From NCBI GenBank assembly GCA_017483905.1, contig JAFUUG010000300.1, positions 1 through 32,292 of the forward strand: a stretch of DNA of 32,292 bases, written 5' to 3'. This document shows positions 1 through 1,509 of the stretch, one piece after another. The position numbers and the translations under genes were made by a program. The stretch's first letter is position 1. Every line of letters begins with the position of its first letter. This DNA is from Bacillota bacterium. GTDB taxonomy: Bacteria; Bacillota; Clostridia; Lachnospirales; CAG-274. The notes under the pieces were generated by a model. That model had not been told where the DNA came from and made no database searches. It saw only the letters and a list, made by a program, of their open reading frames with translations.

Positions 1-20
1 ACGACATTAAAAAATGTCGT
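1..20. repeat. Inverted repeat at the left window edge (partial element)
   Basis: Arms ACGACATT (1-8) and AATGTCGT (13-20) form a perfect 8-bp hairpin with a 4-nt loop. The sequence just after it, TGTCGTTTACTATA (15-28), recurs at 123-136 as the right arm of another inverted repeat, so this hairpin probably continues left of the window with an AGTAA extension. It appears to be the left flank of the structured repeat that follows. Confidence 0.5.
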
Positions 21-40
21 TTACTATAACCCTACGGGGT

Positions 41-92
41 ATGCACACGGCTGCGTACAAGGTAGTTAGCCGCTTTGCGGCACGCAGCCGGC
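41..92. repeat. Structured GC-rich repeat, copy 1
   Basis: This 52-bp core matches the segment at 1083-1133 almost base for base: ATGyACACGGCTGCG, about 11 variable bases, then TAGCCGCTTTGCGGC and ACGCAGCCGGC. It folds as a nested structure. CGGCTGCG (48-55) pairs with CGCAGCCG (83-90), enclosing an inner GCCGCTTTGCGGC hairpin (69-81). The variable bases fall in the unpaired part and both stems are conserved, which suggests the fold is what is maintained. The element is much richer in GC than its surroundings. It resembles REP or small palindromic mobile elements, but the family is not recognised. Confidence 0.7.
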
Positions 93-95
93 GCG

Positions 96-134
96 AGTAA
101 ACGAGCAAAAGTATAAATACTTTTGTCGTTTACT
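96..134. repeat. Inverted repeat flanking repeat copy 1
   Basis: The left arm starts AGTAAACGA (96-104) and the right arm ends TCGTTTACT (126-134). The arms pair over about 18 bp with a single extra base and a loop of two or so bases around 115. It begins within four bases of the GC-rich core and seems to be part of the same composite element. Confidence 0.65.
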
Positions 135-178
135 ATAAATAATGTAAAAAATATTTAAAGTCAATTAAAATAAAATAC

Positions 179-207
179 TTGTCATTATAAACATTATATG
201 ATATAAT
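179..207 (+). promoter_or_regulatory. Sigma-A-type promoter of the DUF4352-like gene
   Basis: TTGTCA (179-184) and TATAAT (202-207) are separated by exactly 17 bp (185-201). The -10 box is perfect and the -35 box matches 5 of 6 consensus bases. Transcription would start near 214, only a few bases before the hairpin at 219-237. Confidence 0.75.
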
Positions 208-218
208 AAAATAAAAAA

Positions 219-237
219 TGACATTCACTGAATGTCA
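219..237 (+). promoter_or_regulatory. Perfect hairpin at the 5' end of the mRNA
   Basis: TGACATTCA (219-227) and TGAATGTCA (229-237) are perfect 9-bp arms around one base. The palindrome lies between the expected transcription start and the AAAGGAG ribosome binding site beginning about 239. It could be a repressor operator, a 5' stabilising stem or a translation-modulating stem; the sequence does not decide between these. Confidence 0.5.
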
Positions 238-255
238 AAAAGGAGTTGTATTATT

Positions 256-861
256 ATGAACAAAAAAATAATTGCAGGATGTGGCTGTGGTTGTATGACC
301 GTAATAGTCGGAATCATATTTTTTATGATAGTGGGTTCGGCGGTATCAAAAAATGATACATCTAAAAAGAACAATGATGTAAATATTACTCCATCAGCTC
401 AAACAACGGAGTCAAATATCGAAGAAAATACTGAAATGGCTGAAAATGCCGAAGAGCCAAGTAATTTGGTTGAAATAGGCGGGAGTTTTGAGAAAGACGG
501 ACTAAAATTTACAGTAAATGATGCAGATACAAATTATCAAGTGGAAAATGATGAATATGGATTTTATAAACCCGATGAGGGCTACAAATATATTGCAGTT
601 TCGTTTACCTTTGAAAACAGCGGAGAATATGACAGATACGTTTCAATTTATGATTTCGATTGTTATGCGGATAATACGAAATGCGAGCAGGAATATTTAA
701 TGGCAGGCACAAAGAATGATTTCGTAAATGCAAATCTTTCTTCCGGCAGAAATGTATCATTTACAACATTTTATTCTATACCGTTAGATTCAAATGAAAT
801 AGAACTTGAATATGAACCGAATTTTTGGAGTGACAAAAAGATCATAATAAAAATACAGTAA
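256..861 (+). CDS. Membrane-anchored DUF4352-like protein
   Basis: The function is unknown. The protein has 201 residues. A hydrophobic N-terminal segment (about residues 5-29) begins with the unusual Cys/Gly run AGCGCGC and anchors the rest outside the cell. A Ser/Thr/Asn/Glu-rich linker runs to about residue 70. The C-terminal ~130 residues carry the pattern of DUF4352 or telokin-like immunoglobulin-fold domains: a GYKYIAVSFTFEN strand, then DFDCYADN and SGRNVSFTTFY. IAGC at residues 6-9 resembles a lipobox, but the hydrophobic stretch follows the cysteine instead of preceding it, so a plain membrane anchor is preferred. I chose the ATG at 256 over the in-frame ATG at 232 because AAGGAG (240-245) is well spaced for it and 232 lies inside the 5' hairpin. 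The gene is monocistronic, with its own promoter and terminator, and lies between two copies of the structured repeat. Confidence 0.7.
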   Translation: MNKKIIAGCGCGCMTVIVGIIFFMIVGSAVSKNDTSKKNNDVNITPSAQTTESNIEENTEMAENAEEPSNLVEIGGSFEKDGLKFTVNDADTNYQVENDEYGFYKPDEGYKYIAVSFTFENSGEYDRYVSIYDFDCYADNTKCEQEYLMAGTKNDFVNANLSSGRNVSFTTFYSIPLDSNEIELEYEPNFWSDKKIIIKIQ

Positions 862-961
862 GGTACAGTAAACAAATAATTTTTTGTGATATGTTTAAAT
901 TTCAAAATAATTTATTTACAGTTCTTAAGATTTTATAATTTCAACATAAGTTAAGATAGAT

Positions 962-1006
962 ATATGTCCGCTGTTTTCATTGAGATAAGCGGACATATTT
1001 ATTTTT
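962..1006 (+). terminator. Rho-independent terminator after the DUF4352-like gene
   Basis: Perfect 11-bp arms, ATATGTCCGCT (962-972) and AGCGGACATAT (988-998), enclose a 15-nt loop and are followed by a T-rich tail (999-1006). It lies about 100 bp past the stop codon and before the second structured repeat. Confidence 0.7.
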
Positions 1007-1039
1007 GAGATTTTTCTTTGGCTGCTTTGGCTGAAAATG

Positions 1040-1077
1040 TATACTGGTGAGCAAAATAAATTTGCTCACTCAGTATA
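1040..1077. repeat. Inverted repeat before repeat copy 2
   Basis: The arms TATACTG-GTGAGCAAA (from 1040) and TTTGCTCAC-TCAGTATA (to 1077) pair over about 16 bp with one unpaired base. It ends six bases before the GC-rich core at 1083. Its sequence is unrelated to the inverted repeats beside copy 1, although the position relative to the core is similar. Confidence 0.65.
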
Positions 1078-1082
1078 ACTTT

Positions 1083-1133
1083 ATGTACACGGCTGCGATA
1101 AAGTAAATAGCCGCTTTGCGGCACGCAGCCGGC
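1083..1133. repeat. Structured GC-rich repeat, copy 2
   Basis: This is the second, direct copy of the core at 41-92. ATGTACACGGCTGCG opens it, and the segment from 1108 to 1133 (TAGCCGC through GCCGGC) is identical to copy 1. The outer stem CGGCTGCG/CGCAGCCG and the inner GCCGCTTTGCGGC hairpin are both kept, while the bases between the stems differ. Together the two copies bracket the DUF4352-like gene. Confidence 0.7.
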
Positions 1134-1136
1134 ACA

Positions 1137-1167
1137 CTCGAAATCGGAAATATTTTCCGATTTCGAG
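1137..1167. repeat. Inverted repeat after repeat copy 2
   Basis: CTCGAAATCGGAAA (1137-1150) and TTTCCGATTTCGAG (1154-1167) are perfect 14-bp arms around three bases. No T-run follows on the plus strand, so a simple terminator is unlikely. It occupies the place that 96-134 has beside copy 1. Confidence 0.65.
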
Positions 1168-1254
1168 TATAAAATAAAGACTGTGATTATACAGAATGAA
1201 CAAAAAATGGGAGAGAAAAATGTAAATTATGTTAAAATTTTTTTTGAAAAAAGC

Positions 1255-1283
1255 TTGCAATTGCGGCGGAAATAGTGTAAAAT
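1255..1283 (+). promoter_or_regulatory. Promoter of the S10-spc-alpha superoperon
   Basis: TTGCAA (1255-1260) and TAAAAT (1278-1283) are separated by 17 bp. Transcription would begin near 1290, giving a leader of about 220 nt before rpsJ. No other good promoter was seen in the ~340 bp upstream of rpsJ, and none as strong was seen inside the 15-kb operon. Confidence 0.7.
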
Positions 1284-1289
1284 ACATTT

Positions 1290-1509
1290 GTTGTGACATT
1301 GAGAGCGATGAATCGAAGGTTGCCGAATATGTTTCGGGTTTTTCGAGGAGCAATGTCCAGTTCATGAAACCGGGCGACAAGTCACTGTAACATATGGGAA
1401 AACGGAGAGAGAAAATCAACAGAGATATTATGCCATCCGTTCCGAAGTGTGCAGTCACCGCTTGTCGTACTATGTTAAGAAAAAGTGCGAAAAGGAGGGG
1501 ACTTTTTTT
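1290..1509 (+). promoter_or_regulatory. Long structured 5' leader of the ribosomal superoperon
   Basis: This is about 220 nt of untranslated leader. Nested stems are visible: GACATTG (1295-1301) with CAATGTC (1351-1357), TCGAA (1313-1317) with TTCGA (1342-1346), and CCGAA (1323-1327) with TTCGG (1333-1337), forming one long interrupted hairpin. A further ACGGA/TCCGT pairing lies near 1400-1440. The leader ends at a very strong ribosome binding site, AAAAGGAGGGG (1490-1500). S10 operon leaders bind L4 in Escherichia coli; whether this leader binds any ribosomal protein is inference, and I do not recognise an established RNA family here. Confidence 0.5.

What the first reader, a model, noticed from the sequence alone, without database searches (positions are those of the whole stretch)
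41..1167. Two direct copies of a nested-hairpin repeat bracket a single accessory gene
The GC-rich cores at 41-92 and 1083-1133 are nearly identical, and both keep an outer 8-bp stem and an inner 13-base hairpin while the unpaired bases drift. They lie in the same orientation on either side of a gene with its own promoter and terminator. This could be a small mobile palindromic element, or a cassette moved by recombination between copies. I do not recognise it as a named family.
Basis: partly seen in the sequence, partly recalled or inferred. Interest (0 to 1): 0.55.

Follow-up and report, generated by a model that had tools for sequence, protein, structure and literature searches.

The report
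Mobile hairpin repeat with conserved core
The two repeats are copies of a small, gene-less jumping element scattered dozens of times through this bacterium's genome, with a folded core whose shape also recurs in distant Clostridia; the gene lying between the two copies here looks like a bystander.

Summary
The repeats are real, but they are only the middles of two larger elements: 1040-1171 (132 bp, complete) and 1-137 (cut by the contig start; 145 bp in intact copies). Each is a 5' terminal hairpin, the nested core and a 3' terminal hairpin, ending in TATA. A covariance model finds 94 strong matches in the draft genome (36 at contig ends, so about 76-94 copies). Three paralogous empty sites show that insertion adds the element plus a 2-bp duplication at TA, the signature of IS630/Tc1-mariner transposition. 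A 3'-truncated IS630-type element in the same genome starts with the same 15 bases as the copy-1 subfamily. So it is a MITE, probably moved in trans by an IS630-type transposase. The two copies belong to different subfamilies with different ends; nothing supports a cassette. Beyond the finding, the core (AUGYRCAC-stem-AAGGAAA-hairpin-stem'-GGCGCR) keeps its stem by compensatory changes in other genera and families of the class, with different terminal hairpins, often reading in the direction of the flanking genes. No Rfam 15 family matches. Closest precedents: pneumococcal RUP and BOX. A new family, a new variant of a known kind; the core's function is open.

The parts
1..137 (+). Copy 1, subfamily A element, 5' end cut by the contig start (first 8 of 145 bases missing)
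   Evidence: C196:1-137; ends in TATA at 134-137
1..28 (+). Copy 1: rest of the 5' terminal hairpin (full form TATAGTAAACGACATT-AAAA-AATGTCGTTTACTATA)
   Evidence: fold; intact copies
29..40 (+). Copy 1: small ACCC-TACG-GGGT hairpin, present in A-type and absent in B-type copies
41..95 (+). Copy 1: conserved core (outer stem, 8-bp stem, AAGG loop, 5-bp hairpin)
96..137 (+). Copy 1: 3' terminal hairpin; its outer arm TGTCGTTTACTATA is the inverted copy of the 5' end TATAGTAAACGACA
179..207 (+). Promoter-like site before the bracketed gene
   Evidence: consensus match only
256..861 (+). Bracketed gene: protein with a DUF4352 domain; bystander
   Evidence: PF11611, E 2.5e-14
962..998 (+). Hairpin after the bracketed gene, terminator-like by eye only
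   Evidence: (inverted repeat I1) and sequence; not listed by the scan
1040..1171 (+). Copy 2, complete subfamily B element (TATACTGG...CGAGTATA), with the presumed TA duplication at 1040-1041 and 1170-1171
   Evidence: the duplication was shown at other loci
1040..1077 (+). Copy 2: 5' terminal hairpin
1083..1136 (+). Copy 2: conserved core
1136..1168 (+). Copy 2: 3' terminal hairpin (15-bp perfect stem)
1185..1289 (+). Empty site: 92.4% identical to a paralogous stretch on contig C487 that carries a B element at the TA corresponding to about 1233-1234

Best explanation
Both repeats are copies of a miniature transposable element that inserts at TA: 130-145 bp, no gene, a hairpin at each end and a conserved folded core between. 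Shown: high copy number, distinct flanks, defined TATA ends, insertion that adds the element plus 2 bp, compensatory changes in the stems, relatives in other genera and families, no Rfam match. Inferred: copies move by cut-and-paste in trans through an IS630-type transposase that recognises the end TATAGTAAACGACA; B-type copies, which have other ends, through a relative of it that was not found; the core is kept as RNA of the + strand, because copies lie more often in the direction of the neighbouring genes, and it may make the element tolerable or useful inside transcripts.
For: Copies: 99 matches at E<=1e-3, 94 of them at E<=1.1e-8, with model R1 in the own genome. Duplication: of 55 insertions with at least 50 bp of both flanks, 3 have a paralogous empty site among the fetched loci, aligned without a gap at the junction, with one copy of the dinucleotide (TA in one, CA in two; 92.4, 90.2 and 83.7% identity). 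T precedes TATA in 32 of 35 copies and A follows in 27 of 36. Helper: a PF13358 transposase on C435 in two pieces (40.3 and 31.4 bits, cut-off 28.6), with TATAGTAAACGACAT 92 bases before its start codon; at 38% GC this 15-mer is expected 6.6e-7 times in 200 sites. Of nine distant homologues found (24-28% identity), eight were tested for ends (L135-L142; L134 was not) and all eight have TATAGATAAACC-type inverted ends with 0-1 mismatch in 16. Fold: double-change cells 66 against 26.1 in shuffles, 169 against 37.4 (alignment fitted to the structure), and for 12 pairs of 26 cores 66 against 19.8, 97.1% paired (MAFFT alignment). Direction: between two co-directional genes the element reads with them in 15 of 19 own copies (p 0.02) and 15 of 16 loci (p 0.0005; p-values).
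Against: The IS630 copy is truncated, so its right end cannot be compared, and its orfA was found in no other of 48 family genomes. None of the six g9 genomes (drafts) shows PF13358, though five of the six carry the element. B-type ends share only TATACT-S-G with each other and match no IS found. In f45 the ends look different and no duplication was shown. Some covariation measures do not beat the shuffles: pairs with double changes (14 against 11.7; 35 of 500 shuffles reach it) and further pair types (498 of 500), further pair types (414 of 500). The single-sequence fold of L184 (the only f63 match) does not show the core, and those of L183, L185 and L189 pair it partly otherwise. Strand tests disagree: whole elements fold better as the minus strand in 34 of 43 (G-U pairs 39 on plus, 72 on minus), while G-U against A-C in helices 1-4 leans to plus (12 against 4, 12 against 7). 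In 16 TATA-ended copies outside the own genome the directions are 4 with, 0 against, 5 divergent, 2 convergent, 5 unclear. Gene strands come from a crude ORF rule.
Confidence: 0.8

Rival explanations
1. A gene cassette: the two direct copies act as recombination sites that move the gene between them.
For: Same orientation, one gene between them, cores 91-94% alike.
Against: Different subfamilies with different ends and terminal hairpins. With about 76-94 copies in 3.5 Mb close pairs are expected, and others exist (C1 at 5361 and 7242; C550 at 2712 and 4496). The gene's protein hits only the window's own locus among the loci fetched; the whole genome was not searched with it.
Confidence: 0.03
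2. The folded core is the essential part: a Clostridial RNA element of operons (processing, stability or regulation) that rides on several unrelated transposon ends, so that the IS630 ends are only this lineage's vehicle.
For: Core kept while both terminal hairpins differ in f6 and f45, and in one weaker f63 match; sense position between co-directional genes in 15 of 16 cases; at the outermost pair 13 of 26 cores have U-G and 12 U-A, and U-G would be A-C on the minus strand.
Against: No expression data; in G705 (f45) the copies are near-identical dispersed repeats, which mobility alone would explain; the minus strand folds better in 34 of 43 whole elements.
Confidence: 0.25
3. A REP-like repeat moved by an HUH (Y1/RAYT) enzyme that recognises the hairpins on single strands.
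For: Each end is its own hairpin, and the stems are nearly pure Watson-Crick (627 WC, 12 G-U, 4 A-C, 10 other in helices 1-4 of A3), as a DNA hairpin would give.
Against: 2-bp duplication at three sites, where enzymes of the IS200/IS605 type leave none (recalled); IS630 end match. No search for HUH transposases was made.
Confidence: 0.07
4. Assembly or binning artefact: a repeat of another organism in this draft genome.
For: 36 of 94 strong matches lie within 22 bases of a contig end (places, contig lengths); 726 contigs, 3.9% contamination.
Against: 36 distinct insertions with complete ends in the own genome, 35 of them with both flanks, and copies inside long contigs of other genomes of the family.
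Confidence: 0.02

Closest known systems
RUP (repeat unit of pneumococcus), proposed to be moved by IS630-Spn1
   Same: Small gene-less intergenic repeat at about 100 copies, TA targets, ends like those of an IS630-type element of the same species (passages of PMC2229807, and PMC3049150).
   Different: Here each end folds on itself, the two ends of B-type copies are hardly inverted repeats of each other, and a conserved core lies between. Of BOX and RUP, Croucher et al. write that the TIRs are hybridised to one another (passage).
BOX elements of Streptococcus pneumoniae
   Same: Modular, tightly folded, dispersed; some shown to be expressed (passages of PMC3049150). Likeness of the ends (TATACT...AGTATA) is recalled, not tested.
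   Different: BOX is built of modules A, B and C; ours keeps one three-hairpin plan. Sequence homology was not tested.
Correia/NEMIS elements of Neisseria
   Same: Dispersed small element whose transcript is said to be cut by RNase III (passages). TA duplication and TATAG-type ends are recalled.
   Different: A pairing of the two ends with each other, as recalled; no separate covarying core known to me.
Structured-RNA catalogues (Rfam 15; Fremin and Bhatt 2021, PMC8040213)
   Same: Intergenic covarying structure in gut Firmicutes.
   Different: No Rfam match on the element at gathering scores in the window or in 11 other loci; runs by E-value gave only sub-threshold matches there. Of Fremin and Bhatt I saw search passages only; their supplementary motifs were not searchable, so a listing there is not excluded.

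Membership tests
IS630-dependent MITE | Short, gene-less, dispersed in many copies | tested here: met
   130-145 bp in the intact own copies; 94 strong matches in the own genome
IS630-dependent MITE | TA target, 2-bp duplication | tested here: met
   Three paralogous empty sites with one dinucleotide; it is TA in one and CA in the other two paralogues, where the filled site has TA
IS630-dependent MITE | Terminal inverted repeats | tested here: inconclusive
   A-type: 14 nt TATAGTAAACGACA at both ends. B-type: only TATACT-S-G shared between its ends
IS630-dependent MITE | Ends shared with an IS630-type element of the same host | tested here: inconclusive
   Left end met for A-type: TATAGTAAACGACAT before the PF13358 transposase on C435. 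Right end of that IS truncated; no partner found for B-type
IS630-dependent MITE | Moved in trans by that transposase | not testable with these tools
   needs a transposition assay
BOX/RUP class of repeats | The two ends paired with each other in the folded transcript | tested here: not met
   Each end pairs with an adjacent inner arm in both window copies
BOX | Sequence homology to boxA, boxB, boxC | not tested
   no BOX sequence was compared
REP moved by a RAYT/HUH enzyme | No target duplication (recalled) | tested here: not met
   2-bp duplication at three sites
Known Rfam RNA family | Score above the family's gathering cut-off | tested here: not met
   none on the element; best sub-threshold bits were 22.5 (cut-offs 65 and 100)
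Recombination cassette | Same gene and repeats found together elsewhere | tested here: not met
   Protein of 256-858 hits only the window's locus, among fetched loci only

The most novel reading that the evidence does not exclude
The core AUGYRCAC-[stem]-AAGGAAA-[hairpin]-[stem']-GGCGCR is an undescribed class of RNA element of Clostridia that sits in the sense direction between genes and spreads on the ends of different transposons: a folded RNA domain that changes its vehicles, so that terminal hairpins and transposase differ by lineage while the core stays.
Probability: 0.25. Interest if true: 0.75.

Novelty: new variant of a known kind. Interest (0 to 1): 0.5.

Why it matters
Small mobile repeats are usually defined by their ends. 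Here the middle is the most conserved part across families, with compensatory changes, while the ends differ, and copies between co-directional genes mostly read with them. That makes a testable case of a mobile repeat kept for the fold of its transcript. The end hairpins, which in B-type copies are hardly inverted repeats of each other, also raise the question of how an IS630-type transposase would recognise them. Practically, 36 of 94 strong matches in this genome lie at contig ends, so the element breaks assemblies, and the copy-1 sequence occurs unchanged in a genome of another genus.

Tried and rejected
Pseudoknot between linker ACTTTAT and loop ATAAAGT of copy 2: seen in B-type copies only and not kept elsewhere. 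HDV-like ribozyme: one weak Rfam match (13.6 bits, cut-off 44, E 2.6). Termite-leu (21.5 bits, cut-off 51, E 0.013): sub-threshold, not pursued. Strand asymmetry of folding: contradictory. A terminator-like match inside copy 2 on the minus strand (1122-1110) was not pursued.

IS630 of C330 and C474 (L094, L095) as helper: L094 has ends TACTAATTTACTTT, unlike the repeat's. IS630-type genes of G351 and G030: no matching ends found. orfA of C435: 1 of 48 family genomes, the own one (E<=1e-10); 4 of 392 genomes of the order, the own one and three at 24-28% identity (E<=1e-8). Mobile carriers: no exact core match in viral contigs; no match of copy 1 in phages; no match of copy 2 or copy 1 in plasmids.

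Limits: searches scored 8 candidates per genome with stricter filters, so absences and copy numbers there are lower bounds. Searches scored 40 candidates, 150 of 1680. One search had a wrong loop length and a faulty pattern, and both found nothing; searches replaced them. The alignment held a stretch on the wrong strand and was not used. The 43 sequences count L084 and L087 twice. In one search two rows (L063, L064) did not show the element, because the start taken was wrong for them. No row was dropped from the 26 cores, but the core ends were cut by a text pattern, which favours sequences that keep those letters.

Full report
Observation. They are the middles of larger units. Copy 2 is a complete 132-bp element at 1040-1171; copy 1 is the last 137 bases of a 145-bp element whose beginning is lost at the contig start. 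Each folds as neighbouring hairpins with the nested core in the middle, far more stably than shuffled sequence.

Copies. BLAST with copy 1 gave 41 matches, 40 of them full or nearly so; with the core and 3' part of copy 2, 61 matches including partial ones and reverse matches of the 3' hairpin. A covariance model from 15 copies (alignment A2; model R1) gave 99 matches in the genome at E<=1e-3, 94 of them at E<=1.1e-8. Of the 94, 36 lie within 22 bases of a contig end (23 at a start; 13 at an end, from the contig lengths) and could be two sights of one copy; hence about 76-94 copies. A script demanding TATA ends found 36 distinct insertions and 23 distinct element sequences in the loci fetched by then. 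Subfamilies differ in both terminal hairpins: A (TATAGTAAACGACATT...TGTCGTTTACTATA), B (TATACTGGTGAGC...CCGATTTCGAGTATA), a B-like group with TATACCGG ends, and a mixed form, L084. Copies 1 and 2 of the window are A and B.

Insertion. In one search the only other matches to the stretch downstream of copy 2 were two halves of a paralogous stretch on contig C487, split by a B-type copy. The window has the empty version: ATGT-TA-AAATTTT against ATGT-TA-[TACTGG...GAGTA]-TA-AAATTTT. A wider test joined the flanks of 55 insertions around one TA and compared them with all fetched loci: four gave a match across the junction; three are paralogous empty sites with no gap at the junction (TA in one, CA in two), and the fourth (L043) is a match to the end of another copy and not an empty site. 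So insertion adds the element and duplicates 2 bp. The base before TATA is T in 32 of 35 and the base after is A in 27 of 36.

Helper. A TA duplication is the mark of IS630/Tc1-mariner elements (recalled; for RUP see the passage). The genome has PF13358 at three places in four rows. L094 on C330 belongs to an IS630 with other ends, and L095 on C474 encodes a near-identical transposase. The third, on C435, begins with TATAGTAAACGACAT, 92 bases before its start codon: the first 15 bases of the A-type element. It is truncated on the right. Homologues at 24-28% identity in G223 and G072 have inverted ends TATAGATAAACC... 59-121 bases from the open frame in the eight loci tested, L135-L142 (L134, the ninth, was not tested), which supports reading the C435 sequence as the IS end. 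Beyond that end I saw nothing shared between this IS and the repeat, so the repeat is not a simple deletion product of it. None of the six g9 genomes has PF13358, although five of the six carry the element.

Distribution. An exact core pattern in named genomes found two assemblies: uncultured Eubacteriaceae SRR8387718_bin.21 (four loci) and Bacillota RGIG4310 from roe deer duodenum (one locus) (records very near the window's own may be left out there). Window 1-137 occurs unchanged in three of the four loci of the first. R1 matched 14 of 392 genomes of the order: the own one, five of g9, one of g8 and seven of another family, f6. R2, built from 13 of the matches then in hand, matched 9 of 391 genomes of the class: the own one, four of f6, three of f45 and one of f63. 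Viral contigs, phages and plasmids gave nothing (phages with copy 1 only).

Core. In these relatives the terminal hairpins and the stem letters are quite different, yet the plan stays: AUGYRCAC, a stem of about 8 bp, AAGG(A)A, a small hairpin, the other strand, GGCGCR. On a MAFFT alignment of 26 cores, 12 pairs are 97.1% paired, 9 of 12 have changes on both sides, and 66 double-change cells compare with 19.8 in shuffles and 2-21 in slid controls; the number of further pair types does not exceed the shuffles. On the 15 full elements: 90.4% paired, 66 against 26.1, but pairs with double change (14 against 11.7) and further types are not clearly above the shuffles. With distant members, on an alignment fitted to the structure: 90.1%, 169 against 37.4, 39 of 43 pairs with double changes. 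Folded alone, L184 (f63) does not show the core and L183, L185 and L189 pair it partly otherwise, so f63 rests on one weaker match. Rfam has no match above cut-off on the element.

Position and direction. By a simple ORF rule, of 39 own insertions 15 lie between two genes that both read with the element and 4 between two that read against it; 7 are convergent, 2 divergent, 11 have an unclear side, and an ORF spans the element in 2 (p 0.02). For 16 TATA-ended copies in other genomes: 4 with, 0 against, 5 divergent, 2 convergent, 5 unclear. For 23 loci, overlapping in part with those 16: 15 with, 1 against, 3 divergent, 1 convergent, 3 unclear, with an ORF spanning 2 (p 0.0005). Examples are between nagB- and nagA-like, ftsZ- and nrdR-like, hisF- and ung-like genes (names by eye from the translations, not from a family search). 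This fits a core that acts, or is best tolerated, as RNA of the + strand. Against it, whole elements fold better as the minus strand in 34 of 43; the G-U count in helices 1-4 leans the other way but is small.

The gene. The ORF with start 256 codes for a protein with DUF4352. It has a promoter-like site of its own. Nothing links it to the repeats.

Known relatives. RUP is the nearest described case, then BOX (passages). My searches for a described Clostridial counterpart were (listings; passages of five papers seen); I saw none. The 2024 review of prokaryotic MITEs does not hold 'clostridi' or 'IS630' in its main text. Supplementary catalogues were not readable here, so an earlier listing under another name is possible.

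Judgement. That it is a TA-inserting MITE is well supported. The IS630 helper is supported for A-type by one end and inferred for B-type. A separate role of the core is a good lead and no more.

Noticed in passing
window 1300-1380: S10-Clostridia ribosomal protein leader (RF03136, 73 bits) before the ribosomal operon; copy 2 ends about 130 bp upstream of it.
   Followed up: no
window 1185-1289 and G000:C487:424-658: The region before the ribosomal operon has a diverged paralogue on another contig, where a B-type element has inserted; the same contig end holds further copies.
   Followed up: partly
L094:1393-2522 and L095: A second IS630-type element, ends TACTAATTTACTTT in L094, with its transposase in two frames; small repeats with these ends were not looked for.
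   Followed up: no
L099, L100, L102 against window 1-137: Unchanged A-type sequence in a genome of another genus, which suggests recent horizontal spread or recent activity.
   Followed up: partly
L181, L188, L191, L193: In an f45 genome (G705) near-identical elements share the core, but the visible ends (ATCATCAGTGG...CACTTGAA) show no inverted repeat or TA duplication to the eye; the way they move is unknown.
   Followed up: partly
L183, L189, L185: Two f6 genomes of genus g16 have elements with a GC-rich variant core (ACTCGCGCG...CGCGCTCGGCGCG), two of them 6.4 kb apart on one contig.
   Followed up: no
window 1110-1122, minus strand: The inner hairpin of copy 2 with the following TATTTACTTT is listed as terminator-like on the minus strand.
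   Followed up: no
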